From Rhizophagus irregularis (taxonomy: Eukaryota > Glomeromycota > Glomeromycetes > Glomerales > Glomeraceae), in the NCBI RefSeq assembly GCF_026210795.1, contig NC_089454.1:992001-1056000 (forward strand): a stretch of 64,000 bases of DNA, written 5' to 3'. Every line of letters starts with the position of its first letter. Position 1 is the stretch's first letter. Under the pieces are notes generated by a model. It was not told the origin of the DNA and did not search any database. It worked only from the letters and a program-made list of their open reading frames with translations. The position numbers were made by a program, and so were the translations under genes. Below, one piece after another: positions 31,649 through 63,913 of this stretch.

Positions 31649-33524
31649 ATGATGTGTGGCATTTTTTCACAACTGGTAAGTTTTTATTTATTTTATTCTC
31701 GATATAAAGACGCTACATAAGAAAAAGAAGAAAAGGACGCTACGTAAGAAAAAGACGCTACGTAAGAAACACAAAAAGATACTTTTACTTATTTTTCTTT
31801 CTCTTTTATTTTTTTTTTAGTGTTGTTGGGTTAAACGTAACCCGGAACCAAATAAAACAGTAAAAACAAAGAGATCATTTAATTTTAACAAATCATTCAA
31901 TCGTTCAATAATGAGATCATCGATTGGAAATAACGGATATACTATGGCAAATCTTTTACATTCGGATTGTTTATTAAGAATATTTCAATATCTTGAAGAA
32001 GATTACGTTACTTTATATTCATGTTCATTGGTTGATAGATATTGGTGTCAAACAGTTATACCAATATTATGGAGTAATACTTTAAGGATTAAAGAATTAA
32101 AAGAAAAATCTGAAACAATTCAAGGTTATTTAATAATTAATACATATTTATCAACATTACCTATTGAAAAAAAACAATTATTTATAGATAAAGGTATTAA
32201 TTTATCATCAATCTCCAATTATCTTCCAACTTTTAATTATTCATCATATTTAAGAGTTATTGATATGAGATGTTTATTCCTTTTTGTTAAATCTTGGATA
32301 CAATTTACGATAAAACAACATCAACAACTTCAACAACAACAACAACAAAATCAACAAAATCAACAAAATCATTCATCATCATTATCTTATAATTCAAAAC
32401 AAGTTCAATTTATTTTACAAGAATTATTAAATCTTTTTTTTAAAAATTCACCTTGTATTCATATTATTAGAATTAATATTTCGGATTCTGCTGAATTAAT
32501 AAAAAATTCTATAGAACAAATCCCAAAACCAAAAAAATGTTTGGCAAATTTAAGAGAACTTGTATCATATTGGGATGAACGTCAAGTTATGGATAATATA
32601 TTTCATGAATTAAGTAAGGTTTCATTATTTATAGAAAAATTAGATTTAACATTATTTCATATAACGGTAGAATTAACATCTTTAATAAGAGTTCAAAGAA
32701 ATTTAAGTAATTTAACTATTTGTAATAAAATAAGTCCTTCAGCTCATTTTGATCCTTGGATAGAAGGTGAAATAGGTACTGCTTTAATGGAAATGTCAAA
32801 TTCTATAACTCATTTAGATTTAGAAAAAGAAAAATTTCCTTTAGATTCTTTAAGTAATTTTAATAATTTGATTGAATTAAGTTTAAAATATACTGGTAAT
32901 GAAAATTTTCAACAAAAAGATTGGTTACCTTTATCAAAAATTTCTTTAAAAAAATTGGAAAAATTTTATTTTGAAAGTAAATCACCAATTTATTTAGAAA
33001 TTTTTGTTGATTTTATAAAAAATTCTGGTAATAATTTACGTCATATAACAATTCATGGTTGTCAAATTTGTGATCCTGAAAAATCAAATTCTTTATTAAT
33101 TACTATAGCAGAAAATTGTCATTTATTAAAATTTTTTGATGGTCCAATAAGATCTGAAAATATTCAAGAATTAGGTAAATTATTAGATTCTTGTTTAAAT
33201 TTATCTGAATTATATTTACATCCTTCTACTTCAAGATGTTTTTCTCCTGTACCTAGAATGAATTTTGATTTATTATTTAATGAAATTACTATTAAATCAA
33301 AAAATGATTTGGAAAAATTAGCTATAGTACATGGTTGGAAAATTACTTCAAATTCTTTAGAAAATTTTTTTGAATCTCGTAAAAAAAGATCTTTTAAACC
33401 TATAGGTTTTTATTGGGAAAGTTCTTGTACTGTATTTAAAGGTATAAGTAATATTTGTCAAAAATATGAAAATCTTGGTGTCGTTCAAGATTTTAAACAA
33501 ATTTATTATCAAAAACATTATTAG
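31649..33524 (+). CDS. F-box / leucine-rich-repeat-like protein
   Basis: The predicted role is substrate receptor of an SCF ubiquitin ligase. The F-box-like segment is LLHSDCLLRIFQYLEEDY to VIPILWSNTLRI, the layout seen in the large glomeromycotan F-box family. The rest is an irregular Leu-rich repeat region (for example ITHLDLEKEKF, LIELSLKYTG, LRHITIHGC) to the end, with a poly-Q/N insert (CAA/AAT codons at 32,324-32,370). The main ORF starts at Met 31,911, and Met 31,944 directly precedes the F-box. A small upstream exon, 31,649-31,675 (MMCGIFSQL), followed by a GTAAGT..TTTAG intron (31,676-31,820), joins in frame and would give 576 residues; this extended start is plausible but unproven. 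The substrate is unknown. A GTGAG minisatellite starts within 10 bases of the stop. Confidence 0.85.
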
Positions 33525-33530
33525 AGGTGT

Positions 33531-33875
33531 GATGGTGAGTGAATGATGAGGTGTGGGTGTAAAGGTGTGAGTGAATGATGAGGTGTGGGTGTAAAGGTGT
33601 GAGTGTAAGGTGTGAGTGTAAGGTGTGAGTGTAAGGTATGAGTGTAAGGTGTGAGTGTAAGGCGTGAAGTGCGAGAAATGCGTGAGTTGTGCGTGAGACA
33701 TGCGTGAGACATGAGGACATGAGATATTTGTTGTGAGACATTAGATGTGGGAGGTGGGAGGTGAAAGATGTGAAAGACCCACGAGAAAAGACTCACGAGG
33801 AAGGACCACGAGGAAGGACCACGAGGAAGGACACGAGGAAGGACACGAGGAAGGACACGAGGAAGGACACGAGGT
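33531..33875 (+). repeat. Two-part minisatellite abutting the F-box gene
   Basis: The first part (to about 33,700) is built from GGTGTGAGTGTAA-like units with GTGAATGATGAGGTGTGGGT variants; the second (33,781-33,875) from CACGAGGAAGGA 12-13-bp units. It is G-rich on the + strand and much GC-richer than the surroundings. It likely forms the 3'UTR or immediate downstream region of the F-box gene and generates the T/H/S/P-rich minus-strand ORFs, which are not genes. Confidence 0.9.
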
Positions 33876-34401
33876 GGAAATAGATCTTTCGATGTAATCA
33901 TCAAAAGAAAAATATAGATCCTTTAAAAAAGGAGATAGATTGGATACATCATCATCAACCACGTTTGTTAAACGTTTGTTAAAAAAAATTCCCTATATAT
34001 AGTAATATATAATAATACTTTGATAGTATTATAAAAAAAAAAATTATAAAAAAAAAAATTTTTTTTTTTTTTGTTGCATCAAATAAATTCAATTTTGCAG
34101 TTATTTACAAAATTTTTTATTTTTGTATATAAATATTTTAAAACTTTTTATTATTTTATTCAATTAAAAAAGAATTCGATTACTTTCAATTCAATTACTT
34201 TAAATATTTTAAATATTCAATCTTTAAATTCAATTGGAATTCAATTGCTTTAAATTCAATTACTCAATCTTTAAATTCAATTGGAATTCAATTACTTTAC
34301 ATTCATACTTTTAAAGAGGAACTGCTTCGTTAAGCAAAAATTACAAGCTTTTTTATTGATGAATGTAACTTTAAAAGAAACAATTAACAATAATAATTAA
34401 T

Positions 34402-36659
34402 TTAATTTAATTCAATTCTTTCTCCTTTATACATCATCAAATTTGGTTTTGGTATATATAGATACTACAAAAAAATATATATATAGATTAATAAACAAAA
34501 ATTTAATAACATCATAAACATCATGTTAAATTTTGTATCATACTTACATCTCTATATAATCCATCACATTTCATTTCCATAAGACATTTATAATTAAATT
34601 TATCTTGTTCAAGAAATGTTTTATATAACAAATGATCCCGTGGAACTATTTGTTTGAAATGTTTTCTAACGATATCCCAACCAATACCATTATAATGAAG
34701 ATTTAATGCACGAGCAAAACGGTGAACATTACATAGTATCAATGTATGATACAAAATCTTATAAACCTATTAAATAGGGGAGGAAAGGTAAATTAATCAA
34801 CAATGGTCTTTTTAAAAAATTATTTGTAACATCGTAACATGCCATACCTCTGGGAAATCTTTTGCTTCAGTAAAACTTTCTTCTAATACATCAACTCTTT
34901 CTCCTATACTTTCAAAAAGTGTATCCTGATGATGTTTAATACCACCAAAATCTCTAACAACAAATCCAACAAGTTCTCCACTTTTTGAATCAAATCTTGC
35001 TAAAACATTTTGTAGATGAGCTTCAAATGAAAATCCATTAACGAAAACTGGTGGAAGGAATGCTTTAAACAAAATCGAAACGAATCTATAATAAAGAAAG
35101 TTAAACACAAAACATCCCTTCTTTTTTTTTTTTAAATTAAAAAATTAATTACTTACCTATCAAAAAAATCAATTCTTTTTTGTTCAGTATCTAAATTCCA
35201 AACCTTTTCCACTACACTTTTACCAAATTCATCTCTTTCAACTAATGCAGCACATATAATAACACGTTCACCATCAGAATTCAATTCATTAAAATCTTCA
35301 CGTATAATACAAGTTGAATGTTTAGCAATGTCAAAATCTTTTTCTATAGAATAAACACCAGCAAATTCTTTACAAACTTTTAATAAATTACGATCAATTT
35401 CAAGTTTATCGATAATACTTCCAAGTGCTGGTCCAGAATGAGTTGACCAAGGCGTAACAGTACGCAATGCTGAAGTAACTTTTATTCCCAATGGAAGCTT
35501 AATTGCTATATCATTTAATTCTGGTATAACAACAGTTCTAAGTGATGCTTGACTTTTTGCTTTAATAGAATATTTTTCTGGTAAAATGTTAGCAAATGGA
35601 AATTTTGATTCAATATTTGGAATTTGCAATTCATGTACTGGGATTAAAATTGTATTTTTTGATGAAGGTGGTGGGGATGGCAACAATTTCGTGATTTTTT
35701 CAATTGTTTTTTCATATGAACCTCGAATCACCATTTTGTCAAGTGGAACTTCAATAAAACGAATTAATGGATTCATGAAATCATACGATCCTGGTAAAAT
35801 TTCTTGAATTGGCGATATTGCATGACGTGCTTTATGCATCTTTTATCGGATGACAAGATGATGATGTTAGAATAAATGTTAAAAGTTATCGCGTGAGTAA
35901 CGTGTGACCAAGAATTTTTTAAAAGGTTAATTACCGGATGAAATGCATGACCTTCGAGTAAACTTTGTTCCCATTCAACACTTGATGAGAAATTCAAAGA
36001 AAGCTGATGTTTATAATTTTTATAAGTAATCTCTAATCAGAAAGAAAAAAGAAAGAAAAGATTAAATTGATAAATTGATAATTGAACAATATTAAAAGTG
36101 TACGTGGCCATTTTCACCAATCAATGAAGGTCCCTTTACCTTGATATTGAACAGAACTATTAATTTCCGCGATAAGTTGATTGGAAATATCATTTTCCAA
36201 ATTCATCCAAACTCCAAATATTCTCATCAATTCAACAGCAGAAATTTCTTCAATTGAATCATTTGAATCATAAGATGAAAAAATGAAATTCATTGACGAT
36301 TTAACATCATTATTTTGGAATGATAAATTTTCTTTAATTTTGATTTTACCAACAGGAAAAATCATGTCCCATGGATCAATGAATTCAACTTTATCAAAAT
36401 GTTGAGTAGATGATGTCATGGGTTTATTTAAAGTTTGAACCGTAATAATATAATTTTCATAATTAAAATTTGTTCTTTTGAAATTTGGTAGAACAAAAAT
36501 CATTCCACCGGATGTTTTAATTTGTTTGAAATCATTTTTTGGTATATTATTGTTATTTGATAGAAATACGGTATTTACGATTTCTTCATTTATTATACTT
36601 GCTAATAAACGTGAAGCCGTAGCAAAATTCGCTCGTTTATTAAAAGAAATACCATCCAT
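34402..36659 (-). CDS. NIS siderophore synthetase (IucA/IucC family)
   Basis: Six exons: 36659-36140, 36032-35935, 35839-35157, 35085-34848, 34766-34548, 34464-34402; all GT-AG and in frame, 606 residues, normal for the family. NRPS-independent siderophore synthetases adenylate a carboxylate such as citrate and condense it with an amine or alcohol. Motifs seen: EGHAFHP-MHKARHA (about 200-213, spanning an exon junction; family form GHPxHPxxKxR), ASLRT (304-308, ATP site), IKLPLGIKVTSALRT (about 319-333), EAHLQN (455-460) and RD (478-479). The start is Met 36,659; an in-frame Met at 36,728 would add 23 residues but lies in a less family-like segment. Divergent from the antiporter gene, with four ATCWGATAA sites upstream. 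Rhizoferrin synthetases of Mucoromycota belong to this family, so a rhizoferrin/glomuferrin-type product is inferred, not shown. Confidence 0.9.
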
Positions 36660-36910
36660 TATAATAAGGAGAAATTTTTTAAAAAAGTCAGAACAAGAGC
36701 GAGGGATTTTCGCAAGTCCTGAATTCAAAGGATAATTATACTTATATTTGATATTTGATCATCAAAAAAAAAAAAAATGAATAGGGGAACATTAAAGAAT
36801 GACAACCGGAAAATATTTCATCCCATTCAATTAATTGATCCATTCCATTAATTCATTCAATATAAATTACAAGAATATGAATTTTTCTTTTTATTGCCGT
36901 TTTTAAATTT

Positions 36911-36927
36911 TTATCTGATTATCTGAT
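36911..36927 (-). promoter_or_regulatory. Tandem ATCAGATAA iron-GATA sites
   Basis: Two exact copies of ATCAGATAA on the minus strand, overlapping by one base (36,911-36,919 and 36,919-36,927), about 250 bp upstream of the siderophore synthetase start. ATCWGATAA is the site of fungal iron repressors of the SreA/Urbs1 type. A CCAAT pentamer lies at 36,960-36,964, which could serve a HapX/CCAAT complex but is common by chance. Function is inferred from the consensus and position. Confidence 0.6.
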
Positions 36928-37066
36928 TAGATTAATAATGATTTTCAAATATTCATCTTCCAATATTTCTTTTTTTAAAGGAAATAAACGGTTTGATCCG
37001 TTATAAAAAAACACTTCACATGGTTATTTTGTTAAACATCCAGTCGAAAATGAAATTTTTTTAAAA

Positions 37067-37092
37067 TTATCAGATTTTTTAATTTATCAGAT
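37067..37092 (-). promoter_or_regulatory. Second pair of ATCWGATAA (ATCTGATAA) sites
   Basis: Two exact ATCTGATAA sites on the minus strand at 37,067-37,075 and 37,084-37,092, about 410-435 bp upstream of the synthetase start and in the same orientation as the first pair. Together there are four exact matches within about 180 bp, whereas only isolated single matches were noticed elsewhere (near 12,541, 17,454 and 63,804). Confidence 0.6.
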
Positions 37093-38298
37093 TTCCTTAA
37101 AATGGTTATGAGCCGCGTTATTCTCAGCTTATGTTATATTCTGGAAAGAATTTGTGTAAATATTTACAAAAAAAAAAAATTATCGCAGTTTGTTGATTGG
37201 TTTCGAAGATAAGAATAAAACCCGATCCTTTAAATTAATCATTCTGAATAATTTTTTTTTAAGCTGTATTACACATGCATTTGATCTTGTTTATTTAAGC
37301 CTTAAAAAAGCGAATGATTTCTAAAGTCGGTCAAATTAATTCCCGGTCCTCCTTTTTATTAATTAATGAACCATAGAAGTGTCAACTTTTGTATTGTTAA
37401 TAATGAGAATAAAATTTTATTTTTAAAATAAAATTACATAAATTATCCCAAATTAAGTAACCTGAGTGACCTAATCTTGCAGAATGGGCGCTAATATTAA
37501 GCAAAGTATCCTCAAAGATCCGAATGATAAGTGCTTTTGATCGTCATGATAAATTAAACGTTCGAAAAAAATAGTAAAATAGAAAAATCTAAGACGAATG
37601 CTAATTTTCTTAATTGGGTAATTAACTATTTTATAAGGTCGATCAATAGTCAGCCTAATAAGTGCTTGCATAACTGCTGCGCTTACGCAGCGAATAAAAA
37701 TCCCCCTTTTTTTTATTAAAAAAAAAAACTTTTTTAAAACCTAATCATCTTTACTTCTCTACTCTATTTCACAAAATTTAGATCGAACATTTACGGTTAA
37801 TAGTTGTTAATAAGGAGGGTGTTTTTTTAAAAAAAAGAAGAATGATAAATTGTGAGTTCGTGACATTTTAAAGTTGATAGGCGTTATTTCTGAGCATCTT
37901 TACTTTTATTGGTATAACTCATATCTTAGATTTCATTATATCACGTGTTTTCTACGAAACTATTTACGGCGTTATTACAATATATTAAGATATTTTACAA
38001 TATAAAAACTTAAATAATTAATTGTATTATTCCCGAGTTTTCTTTTAAATAACATCGACTCGATTTTTTCTTCCCAAAAATTTATAAAAAAAATTTCAAA
38101 ATTTTTTTTTTTTTACGGAAATATTACGGGGTTAACTTTATATATATCCAGGAAACAGGATATTGGGACTGTTGTTCTGTTCTTTGGGCTCACTCTTTAT
38201 ACTTTATTGCAATTGCAATTCTAAAATTTTTCTGGGAATCAACTTTTTTTATTAAATAATAACTTTATTTTTTCATTACGAACAAAATAAAAAAAAAA

Positions 38299-42155: not shown

Positions 42156-43162
42156 AGGAATTTTTAATTTGTGATATATTACTTAATTTCCCTGCATCCA
42201 ATATCACCCCGCTATTCTTATACTATTCCTACTTCACCTAGTTTAATATATTTTTTTTTATTCTGTTTAACGAGATTTGATATATCAAATTGCAGAATCT
42301 TTTTAAACCCATTCATCAAATAAATGTAACTTCTAATTAAACCCCCCTAGATATTAACCTTATTTAGTTATTAGCATTAATTTAGTGGTAGTCGAGAAAC
42401 ATTTATTATTATTAAAAAACCAAAATATTTTGAAATGTGATCATACAAAAAAAGCAATAATAATAATTTATTTGATTATCCAAAATGAATTTTATCATAT
42501 ATCGTCATTTTTTTTAATTACCCTTGAATTGTTTCAGTTTTATAATTTTTATTTTTCGGATTATCCGCGGGTAATAACTAACCAAATTTAGCTTAAACTA
42601 AATGAATTTGGTAAATTAGGGTACACGAGTTAAATGATATTCGAAATTTGAAACAATTAAAATGTCGCAATACATACAAATACATAATGAAATGTTAAAC
42701 AAACCTAACAAACCTGCATTTGTTTTATGGATACTATAATTTAAGTTTTACTACGGTGAAACACGATTGCTTGCTTTGATCAAAATATTTTATAATAATA
42801 TTCATTATAATTTAATTTGTTCGGTGTAATTTTTTAATTTTCAAATTCAAAAAAAAAATAATTTTTAACCGGATAAAACCTTTGTAAAACTTCAATTAGT
42901 ATTAACGAAAAATGGTTGGCTCAACTGATTAGCAATATACACAAATCTGTATAAATGTAAATCCATATGAATCCAAAAAATAAAATGTATCTTATATATC
43001 CTTACTTTTTATGTTGATTACAGGTTTTTTTTTTTCACTCTCTTTCTGTTTAGCTTTCTCATTTCTTACATTCATTTTAATATCATTCATTTCAGTGATT
43101 TGAATGAATCGGAATTATTAGTGACGTTTTACTTTTCTTGACAGAGTAAATAGATTGAGAGT
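42156..43162. other. Intergenic region upstream of the LEA-like gene
   Basis: AT-rich, no clear gene. At 43,011-43,100 an ATG opens a 30-residue, strongly hydrophobic reading frame (MLITGFFFSLSFCLAF..) ending just after TTTCAG; it could be a signal-peptide exon of the next gene, but no well-scored donor joins it in frame. Confidence 0.45.
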
Positions 43163-45106
43163 ATGTTTTCTTCTAGTATTAAACGCGATGGTCGTTTTTA
43201 TTTATTTGAAAATATTAAAATATCACTTTATACTAAACGAGAAGAACTAAAATTAGACGTATCAACAAATGTTGAAGTTAATACGCCAATAAAAGAAGTA
43301 GTAGATAATAAAGTAGATGATGCCAAAAAGGTAGTAGATGATGTTGACAAAAAAGTAGTAAAGGATCCTGTCAAAAAAGTAGATGATACTACCAAAAAGG
43401 TAGTTGATGATGTTGGCAAAAAGGTAGATGATGTTGACAAAAAAGTAAATGATACTACCAAAAAAGTAGTGGATGATGTTGGCAAAAAGGTGGATGATGT
43501 TGACAAAAAAGTAAATGATACTACCAAAAAAGTAGTGGATAATGTTGACAAAAAGGTGGATGATGTTGCTAAAAAGGTAGATGATACTGCCGATAAGGTA
43601 GTGGATGATGTTGGCAAAAAGGTGGATGATGTTGCTAAAAAGGTAGATGATACTGCCGATAAGGTAGTGGATGATGTTGGCAAAAAGGTGGATGATGTTG
43701 CTAAAAAGGTAGATGATACTGCCGATAAGGTAGTGGATGATGTTGGCAAAAAGGTGAATGATGTTGCTAAAAAGGTAGATGATACTGCCGGTAAGGTAGT
43801 AGATGATGTTGGAAAAAAGGTGAATGATGTTGCTAAAAAGGTAGATGATACGGTAGATAATACTATCAAAAATCCAATTAATGAACTTCCAAAGGCAGTT
43901 GATCCAGATAATAATAAAAATCCACTCGATAATCTTCCGGTCAAGAATCCTCTCGATAATCCTTTAGTCAATAATCCTCCAGCTGATAATCCCATAGATA
44001 TCAATCCTCCAGTCGATAATCCCTTAGGCAATAATCCTCCGGACAGTAAGCTTCCACCTCCAGTTAATAATCTTCCGGTCAATATTCCACCACCACCAGA
44101 TAATAATCCTCCAAATAATCCTCAAGATAATAATCCTCCTCCAGACAATAATCCTCCAAATCCAAATAATCCTCCAAATAATCCTCAAGACAATAATCCT
44201 CAAGACAATAATAGTCCTCCAGCTAATAACAACCCAGATAATCAAAATACGCCAGAGGCGAATAATCCTAACGAAAACGCAAGTCCTCCTGTTAATAATA
44301 ATATTGTAAATCCACCCAATGCACCTGCATTACTGCCTCCGGACTCAGAGACTCCACAGAATCCTCAAGATCCTCAGGATCAAGATAAATTTAAATCAAA
44401 AGATGATCCATTAGGTCTTAAATCTAATAACTCACAAAATAACACTGAAAATGCAACTGGTTTAAACGGTTTTGATCCAACGAAAACAAACGATCCTTCA
44501 TCAGGTACAGGTTCTTCAATATCACCGACAATTGGCACGGGGAATCCAGGAAATCCGCTGGATCCAAGTTCTCCATATCATATACCTGCTATGATTGGCA
44601 TTGTTGTAGCAATTTTTATGGCAACATTTGTTTTAATTGTTATATTAAGGAAAATATTTTCAGATACGTCGAAAAAATCTCGTTATCAACGAACATATTC
44701 AGTGGATGTGGGTAAACTAAATCAACAACAAGATGCTATGACAGATCATAGTTTACCTCAATGGTCTTCAAATAACCACATTGAAGAAATAAGAGCACCT
44801 TCTCCAACTATTACTATTACTGGAGGATCATCTCTCCTTCCAAATTCTCAATTAATAGACATTGATTTAAATGAAAATGAAAATATATCTACAACACAAA
44901 CAAATGAAAATAACATTAAACCTATAGATTATAATGAGCTTGTAAAAAGATCAAGTTTATTAAGATATTATGCTAAAGATTTTGATGATGATACAGGAGA
45001 AGAAAATAATAACGAAAGGGCTGAGACTGAATCTGAAATTAGTAGTGCTTATGGTTTACCAAAACAACTCGACAAAATTGTTACTTGGGAAGAATGTATG
45101 AGATAG
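43163..45106 (+). CDS. Single-pass membrane protein with LEA-like 11-mer repeats
   Basis: A 647-residue ORF in four parts. About 48-232: amphipathic repeats of 22 residues (two 11-mers, KKVDDVAKKVD and DTADKVVDDVG), alternating Lys and Asp, like group-3 LEA or apolipoprotein-type helices. About 235-440: Pro/Asn-rich linker (NNPPDNNPP-like). About 475-500: one membrane span (AMIGIVVAIFMATFVLIVIL), followed by RKIFSDTSKKSRYQR, which by the positive-inside rule puts the last 145 residues in the cytosol. An outside N-terminus needs a signal peptide, and none follows Met 43,163, so a 5' exon is probably missing. Function unknown; a cell-surface or wall-spanning sensor is one possibility. Convergent with the next gene, 266 bp apart. 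Confidence 0.7.
   Translation: MFSSSIKRDGRFYLFENIKISLYTKREELKLDVSTNVEVNTPIKEVVDNKVDDAKKVVDDVDKKVVKDPVKKVDDTTKKVVDDVGKKVDDVDKKVNDTTKKVVDDVGKKVDDVDKKVNDTTKKVVDNVDKKVDDVAKKVDDTADKVVDDVGKKVDDVAKKVDDTADKVVDDVGKKVDDVAKKVDDTADKVVDDVGKKVNDVAKKVDDTAGKVVDDVGKKVNDVAKKVDDTVDNTIKNPINELPKAVDPDNNKNPLDNLPVKNPLDNPLVNNPPADNPIDINPPVDNPLGNNPPDSKLPPPVNNLPVNIPPPPDNNPPNNPQDNNPPPDNNPPNPNNPPNNPQDNNPQDNNSPPANNNPDNQNTPEANNPNENASPPVNNNIVNPPNAPALLPPDSETPQNPQDPQDQDKFKSKDDPLGLKSNNSQNNTENATGLNGFDPTKTNDPSSGTGSSISPTIGTGNPGNPLDPSSPYHIPAMIGIVVAIFMATFVLIVILRKIFSDTSKKSRYQRTYSVDVGKLNQQQDAMTDHSLPQWSSNNHIEEIRAPSPTITITGGSSLLPNSQLIDIDLNENENISTTQTNENNIKPIDYNELVKRSSLLRYYAKDFDDDTGEENNNERAETESEISSAYGLPKQLDKIVTWEECMR
43380..43860 (+). repeat. 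66-bp in-frame coding repeat
   Basis: Units of 66 bp (22 codons) beginning GTTGGCAAAAAGGT(G/A); the three central units (about 43,609-43,800) are almost identical, and outer units are more diverged. This pattern suggests growth by unequal exchange within the open reading frame. Confidence 0.85.
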
Positions 45107-45372: not shown

Positions 45373-46143
45373 TTAATGTATATCTATTTCTGTCATTTCT
45401 TCTTGAACAGAAAATGGATTATCCTTCATATACGCAGCTACATTACTTTGATATTTTATCACTTCCAAATATTCAATAATTTTCTTCAATTCAGAATCAT
45501 CCCCATTACGTGAACTTTTGAGATCAAATTCACGTGGATGAATTGCATTGAAAGGTTGCAATTTAGTTTTATGTCTAGAATCATCAATTAAAATGGTATT
45601 CGTAGGATCCAATGTTAACTCGGAAGAACTTTTCAATGTATACTTGGAAAGATTGCCATTAGCAATTTGAGAATTCAAATCATTCCAAACTATTTCCAAA
45701 TTTTTAAAAGGTACAGTATGCCTTTCATATTCTCTTTTACTAAGACCAAATTTATCACGACCCCAAATAGCAATTAGTTTTTCTCTTTGATTTCCAAATA
45801 TTAAATCTACCATAATTTTAGCATTTTCAGGTCTTGCAGTAGTCCAAATCATCACCAAGAAATTACCATCAGTCAAAAGATAATCAATAAATTCTTTGAG
45901 AAAAGGACGTAAAGTTATCTTACGAGTTTTCTTCCGATAAACTAAGGTTCCATTTAAATCTAATATAATTAATTTTGGTGAAGGTTTTGCAAGATTAATT
46001 GAAGGTATAGAAGTAATATTTAAATATTGTTTTGTTGGAGAAGTTCTTTTTTTTGACCAAAATGACCAAATTAACCATGTCCAAAATGACCGAAGTAACC
46101 GAAATGGCCGAAATAACAAAAGTGAAGAAAATGATGATCCCAT
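45373..46143 (-). CDS. FCP1/NIF-like HAD-family protein
   Basis: Single-exon, 256 residues. The HAD fold motifs are in order: ILDLNGTLV (Asp62 as nucleophile), MIWTTARPENAK (motif II, hydroxyl residue), and NTILIDDSRHKTKLQPFNAI (motif III/IV, DD pair), the FCP1 homology layout of small CTD-type phosphatases. The second Asp of the usual DxDx(T/V) is Asn here, which removes the general acid and may weaken or change catalysis. The N-terminus reads MGSSFSS, a possible N-myristoylation signal (Gly2, Ser6), followed by an aromatic-rich stretch with Arg residues (LLLFRPFRLLRSFWTWLIWSFW) likely to sit in or on a membrane. Substrate unknown. Confidence 0.8.
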   Translation of the reverse strand: MGSSFSSLLLFRPFRLLRSFWTWLIWSFWSKKRTSPTKQYLNITSIPSINLAKPSPKLIILDLNGTLVYRKKTRKITLRPFLKEFIDYLLTDGNFLVMIWTTARPENAKIMVDLIFGNQREKLIAIWGRDKFGLSKREYERHTVPFKNLEIVWNDLNSQIANGNLSKYTLKSSSELTLDPTNTILIDDSRHKTKLQPFNAIHPREFDLKSSRNGDDSELKKIIEYLEVIKYQSNVAAYMKDNPFSVQEEMTEIDIH

Positions 46144-47035
46144 GTTGTCCAGATATCTATAACCGACATTTCAAAACGGTTGTTGAGATTTAAATATTAA
46201 ATTGACAAAAAATATAAAATATTTACCTACAAGTTAGTTTGAGTCAAAAAACCAATATGCTTGTGCTGCTTGTGCTGCTCAATTATTATTAATTTCCTCC
46301 TTTAGAAATTTACCATGTTACCAAGGGATTTGATTGGACGTAATTTTACCAATAACGATAATCTACAATTCTATGCGTATGGTTTGTATTGTAACGCTTA
46401 CATGATACATACCGTTACGCAAGTCGTCAATGTTGGATGAGAATCTTTTAGACATTTCTGATAATTTAATAAAAACTTTTTCTTCAATCGAATATTCAGG
46501 TTTTCCATTAAAAGTTTTATAATAAATTTTCGAGGATCATGAATGATGGTATATAAGTAGGTGTTTGATTTGATTGAAATTTTTTTTTTTTAAAGGATTA
46601 ATTTTTTTCTTTTTATAATCTTTCGTTAAATTATTTTACATCAAAAAATTGTTCGTTCTCACTTAATTATAATTGCAACTTGAATATACTTGAATATATT
46701 GTCACTTTCATAAGAATTTTTTTTTTTTACATAAATGAATTTTCTTTTGGTGATTCTTCTTTTCGATTTTCTTAATAAATAATGAATCGAATAAATTCTG
46801 AATAAAATAAAACGGCCGAGAATCACATCAAACAATGTCAAAAATATATATATACACCTAAATTTTTCAGAAGTTTGATTATTTCTAAAAATGTTCAAAA
46901 AAATATATTCAAATATAACAACGATAACGGTAACAACGGTAATATGGTGTAATAAATTTTATTAATAAAATAATAAAAATAAAATATGTAAATTTTACAT
47001 ATAAATTAAATTAACTCTACCTAAAGATCTGATTA
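46144..47035. other. Gene-free region upstream of the FCP1-like gene
   Basis: Likely holds the FCP1-like promoter. The minus ORF at 46,659-46,898 is K/I/F-rich and not convincing. Otherwise nothing visible. Confidence 0.45.
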
Positions 47036-48195: not shown

Positions 48196-50761
48196 TATAC
48201 AGATAATTTCTATGTCTATACCAACTACAAGATTCTTACACTTCCCTCTATAAACACAATTTATTAATAATATCATCCAATCATACATATGATATTTTCG
48301 CCTATTTGCATTACTCTTATCGTTTTGAACCGCGATGATCCATTTTCGGTCATCAGTATGCAAAATAAACCATTATATTAGTGAAACATGTTCGGCCGAA
48401 AAAAAAAACAGGTCGAATGTTCTATGTTATCAGACAAATCAAATAAACGAAAAATACAAATGATAAAGGTGTTTCGATTTTATTATCACCAGTACAATAT
48501 TGTGCACTTTCGATCGAATTTCATTAAACAAGATTTTTGGTCCATATTATTTATTTTTTCATTTGAAAAAAGAAAATTGGCAAACGTATCCATCAATGTA
48601 ATTTGCTTTCCTATATGTAGCTCCATATTTTTTTATTAATGTATTTCATGGGAATATTCGTAATTCCATGACGCAACCGTGAACATTAAATATTTTCGAG
48701 AAATAAGTATTCGTTCCTGCTGAATATAATTTGATGATCATCGTCTAATTACATAAATCATAATTTAACAGTCATTAGGGGAGGGCACCGGACCGACTGA
48801 TCAATCTACAATTTTTTGGTCATAGTGCCGGTCCGAGCTATTAGTGGTTGAACTTTAATCCTTGAACTTGTTGGAACCAAACTATTCCTATTCTTTACTA
48901 CCATTAAACCTTATGAATTATGTTAATAAAGTCCAATTCTTGGCGATTTCAACAAACACTATAAATGCTATTATACCTTGTTTATGATGTAACATTTACT
49001 TTTAAGTGCATTAACAGTTTATTTGTAAATTGTAATATAAATACATAGTAAATAATAAATGGTTAGACTCCCGGCTCCCCGTAAAGGTGATACCGTGATA
49101 AATAGCTTAATAATAAACGGTAAAAATGGGAACATAGAAGGGTGTGACGCATTGTAATAACCAACAAACAGTACATAACCCGCATAACTTCGCAGCCAAA
49201 CCCAGAGGGGATTAAATCCAAATTCCAATAGTATTTGCATTTATTTTATAAGGATTAAATTTGGTTTAAAAACATTACTTTTTAAAGAAATATTATAATT
49301 GCAAAATAGACAGAAAAAAAATGTAGACAAGTAAAAGATTATCTATGTTTATAATAATTAATTGGACACATATTGTTTCAAATTTTATTAAATTGCCATA
49401 TTTAAATAAAGTAACCGTAAAATATCTTTAAAGTTCTTTCTCCCTTGCAAAATAGTTGGTCTGTATTAATATAATTTATTAGTAAGTGTTATACAATGAT
49501 CAAGATAAGTAAGAACCACACATGTGGATATTACAAATTAATGCAACACAAAAATCATTGCACGGATTTCGGATGGAAATTTCGTATGAAAATGGAAACC
49601 AGTCATAATTCTATTTATAAATTTTAAAAAAATTCTGTTCTTTCTTTCAAAAAATGGAATTGATTTTACATATATTACTTGGAATATTCTAATTTCTTTT
49701 TAAAAAAAAAAAAAATTAAAATTAAAAAATTCTCCAATTCTCCAATTAATTAATACATAATCAAACAATGCTAGATAATAATAATAATACGATATGTTAG
49801 GTCATAAACTCATAAGCAATGTTTACCACTCCTCGGTTTAATTTTAGAAAGGCCCAAACATTTAATAATTATTCTTCTCGTAAAAGGACCACATCATTTG
49901 TTTTTAAAAATCCGTTTTCTTAATAAAAGAATTACCCAAAAAAGTAAAGGATTAGTCATTTTCGCTAACCAATTGGTTCTTTAATAGATTTCGTGACACA
50001 AACTACAAATAAAAAAACCGCATACAAACACCGATCGTTTTTCGCATTAAATATTACTCAATGAAAAATTCATTAAACTATTTTAAATCAACAATTGGTT
50101 CAAATAAATTATATTCAAATCGAAAAAAATAAATAATGCTCCCCTCTTAAAAAAGTATGGGTTGTAAAATTTCCTTTGTATTACAAACAGTAAAAAAAGA
50201 ATGAATTACATTATCATATATATAAATTTTATTTATTTTTATTTTTTTTTTTACCGAAATTTCTCTTTTCATTTCTTTCTTCTAATATTTAATTCTTTCA
50301 TTAATTTACAAGGTTTGCAAAAATTCATTTTTTTTGCCCTTGAGTTTATTTTCGAGGTAGGAAAGAAAAGAAAAATATCGTTCTTTTATTTTTTTTTTCC
50401 TTTCCTCCATGCATAATATTATATCCTACAGTCTCGATGCGATTGAAAAATTCCTTTACCTAGACATCCTTTCATCATCATCGTTTAATCCCTCTCCATC
50501 TTAGAATTTTTTTTTTTATATTCTACAAGAAAAAAAAAATAAAATAATAATCTCATATAAACTCAAATAATAATCCTTTAACTCATTCTCTTTTTACCAT
50601 TAATTTCGAAAATAAAAAAAAGAAAGCTAATTACAATATTAAATACCTTTTCCTATTTTCATAATTAGAAATTAATTTAATTAACGAAAAACATTCGTAA
50701 TAATAATTTTTCTAATCATTAAATTTTTCCGAACATTTTTTTTTTTTCCATCCATTTCCAA
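48196..50761. other. 2.5-kb gene-free stretch
   Basis: No supportable gene. At 49,055-49,210 a moderately GC-richer patch gives a 73-codon minus-strand ORF (..YYNASHPSMFPFLPF..) that I do not recognise. At 48,780-48,835 the inverted motifs GGCACCGGACCGA / GTGCCGGTCCGA form a weak palindrome, perhaps an element remnant. The last 600 bp (T- and CT-rich) probably include the promoter of the next gene. Confidence 0.45.
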
Positions 50762-53700
50762 ATGATTTTAAATAAAATAGAGATACGTTTTAGTATATGG
50801 TTACTCTTAATATTTTGTTCATATTTTATAACATTAATTCACCAATCGGAAAGTTATAATGGTTCAAATTTATTAAGACAACGATATTTATTTAAATCTG
50901 ATTCTTTAAGATTTAAAAGAAATTATTATTATAATAATGGTTTTTTAAATCATAATAAAGAAATTTTTCGTAGGGCTGAACCTAATGCTAAAAATAATAA
51001 TGATGGAAAAACACCTAAACCGGAAAAAACTGAAGATCCTGCTCCTAAAAAAGAGAATAACCAACCCAAAGAACAACCCAAAGAACAACCCAAAGAACAA
51101 CCCAAAGAACAACCCAAAGAACAACCCAAAGACCAACCCAAAGACCAACCCAAAGACCAACCCAAAGATGAACCCAAAGACCAACCCAAAGACCAACCCA
51201 AAGACCAACCCAAAGACCAACCCAAAGACCAACCCAAAGACCAACCCAAAGACCAACCCAAAGACCAACCCAAAGACCAACCCAAAGATGAACCCAAAGA
51301 CCAACCCAAAGACCAACCCAAAGATGAACCCAAAGACCAACCCAAAGACCAACCCAAAGATGAACCCAAAGACCAACCCAAAGAACAACCTAAAGAACAA
51401 CCCAAAGATCAACCCAAAGATCAACCCAAAGATCAACCCAAAGACGAACCCAAAGACCAACCCAAAGAACAAACCAAAGACGAACCCAAAGATCAACCCA
51501 AAGATCAACCCAAAGATCAACCCAAAGACGAACCCAAAGATCAACCCAAAGAACAACCCAAAGAACAACCCAAAGACGAACCCAAAGATCAACCCAAAGA
51601 TCAACCCAAAGACCAACCCAATGATCAACCCAAAGATCAACCCAAAGATCAACCCAAAGATCAACCCAAAGAACAACCCAAAGATCAACCCAAAGACACT
51701 TCACCAAAAGATAATACACTTGATCAACCAAAAGATCAACCAAAAGACATTCCGAAAGACAATACAGATAACAAACCTGATCAACCAAAAGACCAACCAA
51801 AAGACATTCCGAAAGACAATACAGATAATACACCAAAAGATCAACCAAAAGACGACAAACCCAAAGATATTCCAAATGATAATGCACCCAAAGACACTCC
51901 AAGTGACGCTCCAAATGATAATGCGCCAGCGGATGCTCCAAAGGTTATTACACCTGATCTACCCAAAGACACTCCAAAGGATGATACACCTGATAAACCA
52001 AATGACAATCCAAAGGATGATAAACCAAAGGACGCAGACACTCCTATAATTGATTTACCTGGAGATGCTCCAAAGGATGATACACCTAATAAACCAAATG
52101 ACAATCCAAAGGACGATAAACCGAAGGACGCAGACACTCCTATAATTGATTTACCTGGAGATGCTCCAAAGGATGATACACCTAATAAACCAAATGACAA
52201 TCCAAAGGACGATAAACCGAAGGACGCAGACTCTCCTATAATTGATTTACCCGGAGACGCTCCAAAGGATGATACACCTAAAAAACCAAATGACAATTCA
52301 AAGGATGATAAACCCGATAAACCAAAAAACACAGACACTACACCCGGAGACGCTCCAAAGGATGACACACCTGATAAACCAAATGACAATTCAAAGGATG
52401 ATAAACCCGATAAACCAAAAGACGTAGACACTCCTATAGTTGATTTACCCGGAGACGCTCCAAAGGTTGACACTCCTATAATTGATTTACCTGGAGACGC
52501 TCCAAAGGATGATACACCTGATAAACCAAATGACAATTCAAAGGATGATAAACCCGATAAACCGAAAAACACAGACACTACACCCGGAGACGCTCCAAAG
52601 GATGACACACCTGATAAACCAAATGACAATTCAAAGGATGATAAACCCGATAAACCAAAAGACGCAGACACTCCTATAGTTGATTTACCCGGAGACGCTC
52701 CAAAGGTTGACACCCCTATAATTGATTTACCCGGGGACGCTCCAAAGGATGAACCTAAAGGTGCCCCAAAGGATGATAAACCTAAAGACCCAAAGGATGA
52801 TAAACCTAAAGGCGCCCCAAAGGATGATAAACCAAAAGACCCAACAAAGGATGAAAACCCCGATAAACCAGAAGACAATCAACCCATAGACAATCCTCTA
52901 CCCGATTTACCCGGGAGCGCTCCAAAGGATAATAACCCAAAAGACAAACCAAAGGATGTTAAATCTGATAAACCAAAGGATAATAAAACTGATAAACCAA
53001 AGAATGACACACCAAAAGATCTACCCACGATAGATTTACCAAAAGCGACACCAGTAGCCAATCCAAATCAAGGAAATTCTACAGATACACCGAAACAAGG
53101 AGATTCAGATGCCCCAAAACAAGGGACAGATATTCCAAAACAAGCAACAGATATACCAAGTTCTATCCAACCTATAAGTACAGATCAAGGAAATGAAATA
53201 CCAACAACAACTAATGATTCAAATCTTCCAAAGGCAACAGAACCTCCTTCTGAAACTAATATAGCCTCAATTGCTACTCCGAAAGTTGATACGAATATAG
53301 TTCCAACTGCTACTCCAAATGTTGGCAAACCTAAAATACCTGATGAGGGTGGAGAAAAAGAAGGTTCCGAAGTTGCTGGTTTTCCTAAAGCAACACCAAC
53401 AAATGATGTGTTTAACCCTCCTACTTCGATAGTAATACCTCCAGTACCAACACTTACTTCAACAACTGACTCATCATCTTCGCCTAATATACCTCAAGAA
53501 ATTGCTGTTGTTGATAACCCAGATAAAGAAGAAGAATTGTTAAAAAGTTCAGGTAAATATCAGAAATTATTAGTAATAAGTTTCTTGGCGCAAAATTTTT
53601 TTTTATAAAGTCATATATATATTTTTTAATTAAAAGTTTATTTTAATATGTAAATTTTATTTTAATTTCTTTATTAAACTTTTTTTTCTTTTAGACAAAG

Positions 53701-58374: not shown

Positions 58375-60169
58375 ATGTCAGAAACATCTCAACCTTCTCA
58401 ATTTAAAGAGGGTGATATAGCATGGATGCTAACCTCAACGGCATTCGTATGGCTCATGGTAATTTCTATCTTTTTTATCTTTTTTTTTTCCTTCCCTCGT
58501 AAAAAAAAAATAATGTTTCCCAAATTCAATAAATCAAAAAATGTTTTAAGATACCTGGTGTAGGATATTTCTATAGCGGAATGGCAAGGAGCAAAAATGC
58601 ACTATCTTTAATATTGTTCTGCTTCTTGTGCGTGCCAGTAGTTGCAATGCAGGTAAAAGAAACTTTTTTTTTAAATTAACGGGGATTATCCGTTATCATT
58701 GTTATCACGATAATTTTGTGGAATTCTGTTATCTGTGTGGCGCAGCACTCCTTATCTAAATTTTACTTTTCTGTAAAAATAGTGGTTTATATGGGGATAC
58801 AGTCTTTCATTTAGTAGGACAGGTGGTTTATTTATAGGGAATTTACGGAATGCATTCTTCATGAATGTTAGAGGCGAACCAACTTTAAAGGCTGAATCAC
58901 TTCCTGAAATTGTACATGCTATTTATCAAGGAATGTTCGCAGCAATTACACCATCATTAGCAATTGGCGCAGCTGCTGAACGTGCTCGCATGCTTCCCTT
59001 GCTTGTATTTATTTTCGTTTGGTCAACATTGGTTTATGACGTAATCGCTTGCTGGATTTGGTCGGCGAATGGCTGGTTTAAGACTATTGAAGGGCTTGAC
59101 TTTGCTGGTGGTACTCCGGTACATATTGCATCTGGGGCTGCCGCGCTTGCATATTGTGTGGTTCTCGGAAAACGTCATGGTCATGGAAGGGACGAATTTA
59201 AACCTCATAATAATGTGAATGTTATTCTTGGTACCGTATTTTTATGGTTTGGATGGTTTGGATTTAATGGTGGTTCCGCTTTTGGAGCGAATACTAGAGC
59301 AGCAATGGCTATTATGGTTACAAATACGGCCGCTTCTTTTGGAGGTCTTGCATGGATGTTAATGGATTATCGATTAGAAAGAAAATTTTCTGCTTTAGGG
59401 TTCTGGTAAATAATTTAACTTATAAAAACTGGGGATCATATAAAGAAGGAAAAAGGAGGGAGGAGGAAAAAAAAAAAAGAAAGCAGAAGATTAATTAATA
59501 TAAATTTATTTAAAATTATATATTTAGTTCAGGTGCAGTCGCTGGCCTTGTTTGTATAACACCAGCGAGTGGATATGTCTCACCTCCCGTCTCTGTATTA
59601 TTTGGAATTACTGGTGGTATAGCATGTAATTTGGCCGTTAAATTAAAACATATTTTAGATTTTGATGATGCTCTAGATGTTTTTGCTGTTCATGCAGTAG
59701 GAGGTGTAGCCGGAAACACGCTTTTAGGTAATTCTATATATATATATATATATATTTCATAATATGATTTAAAAGAAGTCATACATGTTCTTACTAAATC
59801 GTTTTTATTTCAGGTATTTTCGCTGATAAAGAAATGGCGGCTTTAAATGGAGAAATTATTCATGGAGGTGCAATAGATGGTCATAGTGTTCAATTAGGAT
59901 ATCAGATAGCTTCTTCAATTGCTGGTCTTACATATTCCTTTTGTATTTCTGCATTAATTTTATATGTTATGGATAGAATTCCTTGTTTAAAATTAAGAAT
60001 GGAACCTGATGAAGAAGAAATTGGTACCGATGAAACTGAATTGGGTGAACCTGCCTATTATTTCCTTGATAGGGTGGTGGCTTCAATTCAAGTACAAATT
60101 GCATCTAAAACAATGAGTTCTCCCCAACAAACACAATTACAATCAATTGATCATATACATTATTCTTAA
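58375..60169 (+). CDS. Ammonium transporter (Amt/Mep/Rh family)
   Basis: It takes up NH4+/NH3 across the plasma membrane. Five exons: 58375-58458, 58551-58652, 58783-59405, 59528-59727, 59814-60169; 454 residues, within the family range. The sequence follows the Amt pattern throughout: GVGYFYSGMARSKNAL, WFIWGYSLSFS, QGMFAAITPSLAIGAAAERAR, FAGGTPVHIASG (first pore His), NVILGTVFLWFGWFGFNGGS, and DVFAVHAVGGVAGN (second pore His). Both twin histidines are kept, so transport is expected to work. The cytosolic tail (about 395-454) is acidic, then Gln/Ser-rich. Arbuscular fungi have several AMT genes; I cannot tell which this is. Intron 4 carries a short TA run. Confidence 0.95.
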
Positions 60170-62613: not shown

Positions 62614-63913
62614 ATGCAGAGTATTTCGTTACAAGATAATAAGTCAGAGGTTAACCGAATTGTGGAAGAAATATATTCAAAAATACAATATACTATAAAT
62701 CCTATTGACGCTTCAGATCGAGTTCTTGTTGCAATAATTAAAGCATTAATATCTTTAAATAATGACCCATCAAGCCCAAGACAATTGGCGGCATGTATAC
62801 AAAAACATGGTTTTACGCAGTTAGGGTAAAGTAAATTAAATATTAAATTTTTTTTTTTTTTTTTTTTTAATTATTAAATTATATTAATAAAAAATATTTT
62901 ATCTTAATTAGTGGTCAAACTCCTTATGCGACAGTATCAGGTCATATATCGACACATTTTTCTCGTGTTCGTAATCAAGTAGTTCCAAATCCAATCATAG
63001 GAAAACAACCTCATCCAACAATCGCAAAGAGATCACTATATTATTTCCTTGATCCTGATAATATTTTAAGAGAGTTACTTAAAGAATATTTTTCAATTGA
63101 TGAAAATTTACAAACTCAGTTAACACCATCTTCACCGGTTAAAAGCGAGTCTGATGTTTCAATAATAAATGGGAATCAATATTGTGCTGAAACTCCTCCT
63201 TCAACTCCATCTTCGATGAAAGATATCGAAGAGGATGACGATGATGTAATAAATAAACCTATTAGTGATAGCGATAATACGGAAACGTATAAAAGCGAGG
63301 TTGAACCTTCTACTGCGCCTCATGGGACTATGGATGACGTGATAGGCAAAAAGAACTTTATAGAAGGAATGAATGGTGTTACACCACCATCATCTCCTCC
63401 AAATTACTTAACATTTCCACAATATTTGCCTGAGATCACACAACGTAATCCTGGATCTCCAAGAGTTCCTTTAACCCCTGATATTCATATAACGAAAATA
63501 AATGGATTAGAAGTTTTTACAACAAGAATAAAAACTTTGCAAAATATTATTATATTATTACGAAGAGTTGATAATAATTATGTTGACAAATATTCATTAT
63601 TACAAGTTGGTGGTCGAAGACCAAGAAACAGTGATCGAAAATGGTATGTAATTTATTAAATAAATTTAAAAGAATTCGATTAATAAAAAAATAAATAATA
63701 ACTTTATTTATTTATTATTAAAGGATTATGTTAGAAGAAGCACAATCAATAGCAATAGAATTAAATATTGAACAAACCCTTGGCATATTTCTTTATTCGA
63801 GATTATCTGATTATTTTGATTTCGACTTGGATTATGCTACAATAAATAATGGTTGTTGTTATCCGTTAGCATATTGGTTTCAATGTGTTAATCCAAAAAT
63901 TTTTGTTGAATGA
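62614..63913 (+). CDS. GDS1-type winged-helix nuclear regulator
   Basis: Three exons: 62614-62825, 62912-63643, 63724-63913; 377 residues. Residues about 35-110 (VLVAIIKALISL..SPRQLAACIQKHGFTQL-GGQTPYATVSGHISTHFSRV) match the fungal GDS1 / HARE-HTH-like winged helix: a helix, a recognition segment with TPYATVSGHIS, and a following PHP..RSLYYFLDP. The middle (about 135-235) is acidic and Ser/Pro-rich and probably disordered. A C-terminal segment (VFTTRIKTLQNIIILLRRVDNNY .. RKWIMLEEAQSIAIELNI) is conserved-looking but I cannot name it. Likely a DNA-binding regulator; yeast Gds1 affects growth on non-fermentable carbon, which may not carry over. Confidence 0.75.

What the first reader, a model, noticed from the sequence alone, without database searches (positions are those of the whole stretch)
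34402..37092. NIS siderophore synthetase with four clustered iron-GATA sites: candidate glomuferrin/rhizoferrin locus
A complete six-exon IucA/IucC-type synthetase (606 codons) keeps the ATP-site SLRT, the substrate-site HLQN and RD residues and the GHxxHP motif. Four exact ATCWGATAA sites lie within 180 bp, 250-435 bp upstream. In fungi this site binds iron-repressive GATA factors (SreA, Urbs1, Sre1). Rhizoferrin in Mucoromycota is made by this enzyme family, and a rhizoferrin-like compound (glomuferrin) has been reported from Glomus. A gene plus iron-type promoter in this DNA would give the pathway a genetic basis.
Basis: partly seen in the sequence, partly recalled or inferred. Interest (0 to 1): 0.92.

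Follow-up and report, generated by a model that had tools for sequence, protein, structure and literature searches.

The report
Probable siderophore gene with iron-type promoter
This fungal genome, probably that of a mycorrhizal fungus, carries one intact gene for a rhizoferrin-type iron-scavenging molecule, of a kind reported since 2014; what looks new is a tight cluster of iron-repressor-type binding sites in front of it, and similar sites in front of a putrescine-making gene and an oxidase gene.

Summary
A six-exon gene on the minus strand (36659-34402, 606 aa, five GT-AG introns) encodes an IucA/IucC-FhuF siderophore synthetase that keeps 26 of 28 near-invariant columns of 41 prokaryotic relatives. 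It is the only such locus found in the 146.7-Mb genome. Four exact ATCWGATAA sites lie 252-433 bp upstream; 0 of 60,000 simulated promoters had four within 182 bp, and background is about 0.07 site/kb.

The gene is not new. Tamayo 2014 reported one iucA/iucC gene, RiSid1, in Rhizophagus irregularis; Koczyk 2021 found the family throughout early fungi, Glomeromycotina included. An SreA-type site upstream of the rhizoferrin gene is in print for Mucor.

What I add: the genome has an SRE/Urbs1-type repressor gene. Five exact sites in 150 bp stand 0.9-1.0 kb upstream of a multicopper oxidase gene, and a palindromic pair 0.5 kb upstream of one of two ornithine decarboxylase genes (putrescine is rhizoferrin's backbone). 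Iron permease, reductase-like, citrate synthase and TRI12-like transporter genes show no cluster. Close pairs are hardly enriched genome-wide.

Best reading: an iron-repressed rhizoferrin-type synthetase. Product and regulation are inferred. 'Glomuferrin' as the product is doubtful.

The parts
36140..36659 (-). NIS synthetase exon 1, with ATG at 36659-36657
   Evidence: open frame, donor GTAAAG at 36139
35935..36032 (-). exon 2 (carries GHAFHP, residues 201-206)
35157..35839 (-). exon 3 (ATP-site SLRT, residues 305-308)
   Evidence: Pfam IucA_IucC over residues 192-406
34848..35085 (-). exon 4 (FEAHLQN and VRDF)
   Evidence: FhuF domain residues 430-576
34548..34766 (-). exon 5
34402..34464 (-). 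exon 6 with stop codon TAA
36911..36919 (-). iron-GATA site 1, ATCAGATAA
36919..36927 (-). iron-GATA site 2, ATCAGATAA, overlaps site 1 by one base
37067..37075 (-). iron-GATA site 3, ATCTGATAA
37084..37092 (-). iron-GATA site 4, ATCTGATAA
36660..38295 (.). intergenic region shared with a divergent gene whose likely first exon begins near 38296; the sites are 0.25-0.43 kb from the NIS ATG and about 1.2-1.4 kb from the neighbour's
   Evidence: hand-joined exons; Na_H_Exchanger 21.0 bits, below the cut-off of 26.2

Best explanation
The gene encodes a fungal NRPS-independent siderophore synthetase of the rhizoferrin type (type A'): it would adenylate citrate with ATP and join two citrates to one putrescine, making rhizoferrin, which is secreted and brings back Fe(III). 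When cytosolic iron is plentiful, an SRE/Urbs1-type GATA repressor, encoded elsewhere in the same genome, would sit on the four ATCWGATAA sites 0.25-0.43 kb upstream and shut the gene; when iron is scarce the repressor would leave. The same repressor may also govern one of two ornithine decarboxylases (putrescine supply) and one laccase/ferroxidase-type oxidase.

Shown: intact coding sequence, family, catalytic residues, a single locus found, the site cluster, the repressor gene's fingers and cysteine-rich region, the sites at the other two genes. Inferred: substrate, product, secretion, binding and iron response.
For: Pfam IucA_IucC 6.3e-27 and FhuF 5.5e-9. Residues aligned with AcsD of the Protein Data Bank: H170/H202, S279/S305, R281/R307, T282/T308, K293/K320, R305/R332, E442/E455, H444/H457, N447/N460, R463-D464/R478-D479 (the AcsD match itself is weak, E 0.026, and H444 and R305 are known from mutants, PMC3323832 passages; the roles of the rest are recalled). 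26 of 28 columns that are at least 90% one residue in 41 prokaryotic relatives are kept, the start methionine being one of them. The best NCBIfam model is FslA, rhizoferrin synthesis, 55.0 bits, ahead of SbnC 28.7 (far below the models' own cut-offs). One IucA_IucC locus found in the genome. Two ornithine decarboxylase genes are present.

Regulation: the site cluster. A two-finger GATA factor with both fingers C-X2-C-X17-C-X2-C and CPGDGHCDGTGGSSSCDGC between them, at C13:2955783-2956253, the layout that PMC2848559 gives for iron GATA factors; no other of the 26 GATA loci has a C-X5-C-X8-C-X2-C stretch. Five exact sites in 150 bp, 0.9-1.0 kb before the ATG of a multicopper oxidase (C26:442559-442708). 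A palindromic pair 490-509 bp before the presumed ATG of one ornithine decarboxylase (C13:2702573-2702592). Only 16 convergent pairs with a gap of 0-30 were found in 146.7 Mb; two of them fall in 100,930 bases upstream of 26 iron-related candidates, expected 0.011 (post hoc). Mucor rfs goes down with excess iron and has an SreA site upstream (PMC9226013).
Against: No close relative of known product was available: the 80 prokaryotic matches kept are 20-29% identical, the branch is very long (3.22 changes per column, with a long-branch warning), and no fungal Rfs sequence could be searched. FslA being the best NCBIfam model is weak evidence, since FslA was also the best model for 10 of 10 bacterial and archaeal relatives scanned. 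Both FTR1 loci, all 5 ferric-reductase-like loci, 3 TRI12-like loci and both citrate synthases lack any cluster upstream, so this is no textbook SreA regulon by the exact motif. With one mismatch allowed, clusters of 4 or 5 occur in 3 of 245 background windows. Close pairs are at or near control level genome-wide: 83 against 46, 7 against 6, 16 against 19. The oxidase and decarboxylase finds are post hoc. No transporter or modifying enzyme was recognised beside the gene.
Confidence: 0.57

Rival explanations
1. An active NIS synthetase, but with another product: a citrate or dicarboxylate amide built on another amine or amino acid rather than rhizoferrin, still controlled by iron.
For: Sequence distance is large (20-29% to the 80 prokaryotic relatives kept; branch 3.22), so substrate choice cannot be read off; the Rhizopus enzyme takes diaminopropane, cadaverine and ornithine as well as putrescine (PMC7857480 passages).
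Against: [quoted passage not shown] The decarboxylase with an iron-GATA pair points to putrescine.
Confidence: 0.22
2. The gene is a rhizoferrin synthetase, but the GATA sites serve another GATA factor (nitrogen, light, development) and the gene does not answer to iron.
For: The genome has many GATA-finger loci: 26 matches, several of them two-fingered. An ammonium transporter gene lies in the same window. FTR1 genes lack the motif.
Against: ATCWGATAA is the extended motif over-represented in the SreA regulon, and it fits known sites of the U. maydis and S. pombe orthologues (PMC2610380 passages). A dedicated SRE-type factor exists, and the richest non-repeat cluster found is at a multicopper oxidase gene.
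Confidence: 0.14
3. The site cluster is a chance product of AT-rich, repeat-prone intergenic DNA and has no function.
For: Close pairs are near control level genome-wide, and the first two sites are a short tandem repeat. Arrays of 4 or more sites also arise from simple repeats elsewhere: C2:3498377-3498439 and C12:2429904-2430011. Relaxed-motif clusters of 4 or 5 occur in 3 of 245 background windows.
Against: Two of the four sites are not part of that repeat; 0 of 20,000 simulated sequences at each of three Markov orders had 4 exact sites within 182 bp; Poisson expectation of such a cluster in the whole genome is 0.003.
Confidence: 0.07

Closest known systems
RiSid1, putative iucA/iucC siderophore protein of Rhizophagus irregularis (Tamayo 2014, PMC4196481; passages and section 13 read)
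   Same: Same family (IucA/IucC with FhuF-like C-terminus), one gene reported there and one found here; very probably the same gene
   Different: No sequence was available to prove identity; the word 'GATA' does not occur in that paper's main text, and it leaves siderophore production uncertain
Rfs, rhizoferrin synthetase of Rhizopus delemar and Mucor (PMC9226013, PMC10700112, PMC7857480; passages read)
   Same: NIS synthetase of a Mucoromycota fungus that suffices alone in Rhizopus; the Mucor rfs upstream region also holds an SreA motif ATCWGATAA
   Different: Product not shown here; Rfs sequence not available for comparison; number of sites in Mucor not seen (supplement)
FslA-type bacterial rhizoferrin synthetases (NCBIfam NF041038)
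   Same: Best NCBIfam model, residues 296-553
   Different: 55 bits against a cut-off of 1000; the model is also the best for 10 of 10 other relatives scanned
AsbB and AcsD (solved structures 3to3, 2w02)
   Same: Same family by sequence (AsbB E 3.4e-10; AcsD E 0.026); all catalytic positions checked against AcsD are kept
   Different: 76 identical of 294 aligned residues to AcsD; different substrates
SreA/Urbs1/SRE iron regulon of Dikarya (PMC2610380, PMC2848559; passages read)
   Same: Extended motif ATCWGATAA and a two-finger GATA factor with a cysteine-rich region
   Different: FTR1, reductase-like and TRI12-like transporter genes lack clusters of the motif here

Membership tests
NIS synthetase (IucA/IucC) superfamily | IucA_IucC domain followed by FhuF-like domain | tested here: met
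   95.1 bits (cut-off 25) and 37.2 bits (cut-off 25.2)
NIS synthetase (IucA/IucC) superfamily | ATP and citrate site residues intact | tested here: met
   26 of 28 near-invariant columns; the two exceptions are E to D at 226 and A to S at 453
Type A' rhizoferrin synthetase (Rfs/FslA) | groups with Rfs, FslA, LbtA, SfaB/SfaD in a tree | tested here: inconclusive
   long branch beside Nannocystis (94/88) with a long-branch warning; none of those reference proteins was knowingly in the tree; FslA is the best NCBIfam model but also for 10 of 10 relatives
Type A' rhizoferrin synthetase (Rfs/FslA) | makes dicitryl-putrescine from citrate, putrescine and ATP | not testable with these tools
   needs protein and mass spectrometry
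SreA/Urbs1-type iron regulon target | over-represented ATCWGATAA upstream | tested here: met
SreA/Urbs1-type iron regulon target | genome encodes a two-finger GATA factor with cysteine-rich region | tested here: met
   layout as described in PMC2848559
SreA/Urbs1-type iron regulon target | motif shared by the other high-affinity iron uptake genes | tested here: inconclusive
   no cluster at 2 FTR1, 5 reductase-like, 3 TRI12-like loci and 12 of 13 oxidase places; cluster or pair at 1 oxidase and 1 of 2 ornithine decarboxylases
SreA/Urbs1-type iron regulon target | transcript falls with iron | not testable with these tools
   no expression data on this gene under iron were seen in the passages read
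RiSid1 | the iucA/iucC gene of Rhizophagus irregularis | tested here: inconclusive
   species not given; loci found: IucA 1, FTR1 2, VIT1 3, TRI12-like 3, as PMC4196481 gives 1, 2, 3 and 3 SIT, though TRI12-like loci were not shown to be SITs; 13 multicopper oxidase places against 'at least nine' in PMC11836134

The most novel reading that the evidence does not exclude
In this fungus, one iron-sensing GATA repressor ties together a private supply line for rhizoferrin: the synthetase (four sites), the ornithine decarboxylase paralogue that makes its putrescine (palindromic pair), and an oxidase of the laccase/ferroxidase kind (five sites), while the FTR1 reductive-uptake permeases are outside this control. 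A duplicated decarboxylase would thus have been recruited to siderophore production.
Probability: 0.3. Interest if true: 0.68.

Novelty: new member of a known kind. Interest (0 to 1): 0.5.

Why it matters
Whether arbuscular mycorrhizal fungi make their own siderophore was called uncertain in 2014 (PMC4196481), and the status of glomuferrin as a siderophore is disputed (PMC13136457). One gene, its likely repressor and two further candidate targets, all with coordinates, turn the question into a handful of direct tests. If right, iron uptake by these fungi would have a second route beside RiFTR1, switched by a regulator of a kind known from many other fungi.

Tried and rejected
Bacterial gene transfer: rejected as a recent event. 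A scan of one genome for each of 84,980 prokaryote species with the protein confirmed nothing (36 stretches matched a pattern). Of 44 plasmid records with a match, the 30 listed are 21.6-26.6% identical and all 44 below 60%. A vertical fungal family is what PMC8070225 reports.

Full regulon by exact motif: searched and not found at FTR1, reductase-like, TRI12-like and citrate synthase genes. For FTR1 a relaxed motif (one mismatch outside GATA) gave at most one site per 200 bp. Upstream of the SRE gene there are one exact and two one-mismatch sites close together; 15 of 245 background windows have 3 or more such sites, so this is not beyond background.

Gene cluster: the neighbours are an F-box-like frame (resemblance recalled, no Pfam hit), an Na/H-exchanger-like gene, repeat proteins, a phosphatase and an ammonium transporter; none was recognised as a siderophore gene.

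Identity of the C26 oxidase with RiMCO1 or RiMCO3: could not be decided; nearest solved structures are laccases, Fet3 (1zpu) lower. Only the first 428 residues were modelled. Its close paralogues on C15, C5 and C10 (66-79% over the main segment) lack a cluster near the gene; the one on C10 has a repeat-like pair 4.4 kb from the matched exon.

The other five of the seven tandem-pair places (L060-L064) have 2 or 3 sites within 200 bp; no iron gene was recognised by eye among their reading frames, and no family search was run on them. The 14 other convergent-pair places were not identified, one of them (C1:6012363) being the same as L060. Structure prediction was not tried, since the spliced protein is not in the window letter for letter.
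Full report
What is there. The stretch 34402-36659 on the minus strand is a complete six-exon gene of 606 codons plus a stop, with five short GT-AG introns. It is an NRPS-independent siderophore synthetase: IucA_IucC (residues 192-406, 6.3e-27) followed by a FhuF-like domain (430-576, 5.5e-9). Aligned with AcsD, every catalytic position checked is the same residue, and 26 of 28 columns that hold one residue in at least 90% of 41 prokaryotic relatives are kept, the start methionine counted as one. This looks like a gene under selection, not a relic. It is the only IucA_IucC locus found in the genome, which has 146,748,485 bases in 32 contigs; the window is C26:992001-1056000.

Organism. It is not named. 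The loci found, one IucA, two FTR1, three VIT1 and three TRI12-like, agree with the numbers printed for Rhizophagus irregularis (one RiSid1, two FTR, three CCC1, three SIT; PMC4196481), though I did not show that the TRI12-like loci are SITs. There are 13 multicopper-oxidase places where PMC11836134 reports at least nine genes (section 5). I treat R. irregularis or a close relative as likely, not proven.

The promoter. Four exact ATCWGATAA sites lie 252-433 bp before the ATG, all in the gene's direction. They are about 1.2-1.4 kb from the likely start of the divergent neighbour near 38296, so they belong to this gene if to any. In 185,037 other bases the motif occurs 13 times. Under that density such a cluster is expected 0.003 times in the whole genome, but repeats break this assumption: at least two arrays of four or more sites elsewhere are plain tandem repeats (C2:3498377, C12:2429904). 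Simulated sequences of the same composition never gave four within 182 bp (0 of 20,000 at each of three Markov orders; four or more anywhere in 0, 0.00015 and 0.00025), and no background window of 245 held more than two exact sites within 200 bp. With one mismatch outside GATA allowed, 3 of those 245 windows do hold four or five, so the exactness of the sites carries the argument. The reversed motif is absent from the same intergenic stretch.

The regulator. Of 26 GATA-finger matches, one pair at C13:2955783-2956253 has the layout of the iron repressors: two C-X2-C-X17-C-X2-C fingers with CPGDGHCDGTGGSSSCDGC between them. No other of the 26 GATA loci has a C-X5-C-X8-C-X2-C stretch in any frame. 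PMC2848559 (passages) gives two fingers around a cysteine-rich region with four conserved cysteines as the mark of SREA, SREP, URBS1, FEP1 and others; the exact spacing as canonical is recalled, not read. I modelled only the finger exons, not the whole gene.

Other genes with the sites. The seven genome-wide places with the tandem 17-mer include this promoter and C26:442592. The latter turned out to be part of five exact sites within 150 bp (442559-442708), 0.9-1.0 kb upstream of the ATG (441678) of a multicopper oxidase whose first nine exons read through without a stop, with a signal-like N-terminus by eye; its best solved relatives are laccases and, lower, Fet3. In R. irregularis two oxidases of this family, RiMCO1 and RiMCO3, improve growth of a yeast fet3 mutant, and RiMCO1 rises 2.3-fold without iron (RiMCO3 1.8-fold, p = 0.089; PMC11836134, passages); I could not tell which one, if either, this is. 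A search for ornithine decarboxylase found two genes. One has TTATCTGATCAATCTGATAA, two exact sites in a palindromic arrangement, 490-509 bp before its presumed ATG; the other has none in the 1.5 kb held. Only 16 convergent pairs with a gap of 0-30 were found in the genome (the tool skips simple repeats), so a pair in either decarboxylase upstream stretch is expected 0.0003 times. Over 26 upstream stretches, 100,930 bases counted from the first matched exon and so in part coding, two convergent pairs were seen where 0.011 were expected. These figures are post hoc: the oxidase was found through the motif, and decarboxylase was one of several families that I tried.

What does not fit. The two FTR1 loci, five ferric-reductase-like loci, three TRI12-like loci, two citrate synthases and 12 of 13 oxidases have no cluster near the gene. 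Single exact sites lie upstream of a few (the SRE gene, oxidases C28 and C14, one C30 reductase-like gene, one TRI12-like locus), which is about background. Genome-wide, close pairs are not enriched, or only mildly: 83 against 46 for direct pairs, many of them repeats, 7 against 6 for the tandem, 16 against 19 for convergent pairs. So either few genes are under this control, or the repressor also accepts looser sites. VIT1 upstream regions were not examined: letters had run out when the VIT1 loci were found.

What it makes. [quoted passage not shown] NCBIfam's nearest model is FslA (55.0 bits), but that says little, as FslA was the best model for all ten prokaryotic relatives scanned. The tree puts the protein on a branch of 3.22 changes per column next to Nannocystis (94/88), with a warning about long branches. 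Glomuferrin as the product is doubtful: synthetic glomuferrin gave no colour change in the CAS test and may be a dehydration product of rhizoferrin (PMC13136457, passages).

Novelty. The gene is known in print, very probably: RiSid1, 2014, 'highly expressed in mycorrhizal roots', with siderophore production left uncertain (PMC4196481, section 13). The family is conserved in early-diverging fungi, 'even in Glomeromycotina', as a single-gene cluster (PMC8070225, passages). An SreA motif upstream of rfs is known in Mucor lusitanicus, where rfs falls with excess iron and where citrate synthase and ornithine decarboxylase transcripts move with oxidative metabolism (PMC9226013, passages). I found no paper on iron-GATA sites or an SRE factor in Rhizophagus: 'rhizophagus' with 'srea' gave 0 papers, 'risid1' gave one, the 2014 paper, and 'atcwgataa' gave ten, none on a mycorrhizal fungus by title. 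The library holds open-licence papers only. So the gene is an old member of a known family; the promoter, the repressor gene and the possible link to a decarboxylase are the additions.

Verdict. Its claim to priority does not. The residual interest is a testable iron circuit in a probable obligate symbiont, with a hint that putrescine supply is wired into it.

Noticed in passing
G000 C26:1063580-1064286 (-), 7.6 kb past the window's end: A VIT1/CCC1-type vacuolar iron transporter gene lies about 35 kb from the synthetase on the same contig; its upstream region was not read.
   Followed up: no
L094 980-1040 and L095 887-947: Both ornithine decarboxylase genes share a 61-base, nearly identical stretch in the presumed 5' leader, split from the coding exon by an apparent intron; it may be a translational control element.
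   Followed up: no
50723-53608 (+): A 961-aa open frame of PKDQ/PKDE repeats behind a signal-like N-terminus, open in several frames because of the repeat.
   Followed up: no
43154-45106 (+): A 650-aa open frame with VDDVxKKV repeats, a proline-asparagine stretch and one segment that looks membrane-spanning by eye.
   Followed up: no
58783-60169 (+): Ammonium transporter exons (Pfam 3e-58 over the first; the second, 59798-60169, was not scanned).
   Followed up: partly
45373-46170 (-): NIF-type phosphatase (Pfam 2.7e-19).
   Followed up: partly
62871-63659 (+): Open frame with a GDS1 winged-helix match (Pfam 8e-9).
   Followed up: partly
33520-33880: Minisatellite of GGTGTGAGTGTAA-like and GGACACGAGGAA-like units between the convergent F-box-like frame and the synthetase.
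   Followed up: no
G000 C2, C4, C12, C14, C15: A 33-base repeat TTATCAGATGCTGCTTTACCACCAGATGCTGCT recurs at several places and makes false iron-GATA arrays, possibly protein-coding repeats.
   Followed up: no
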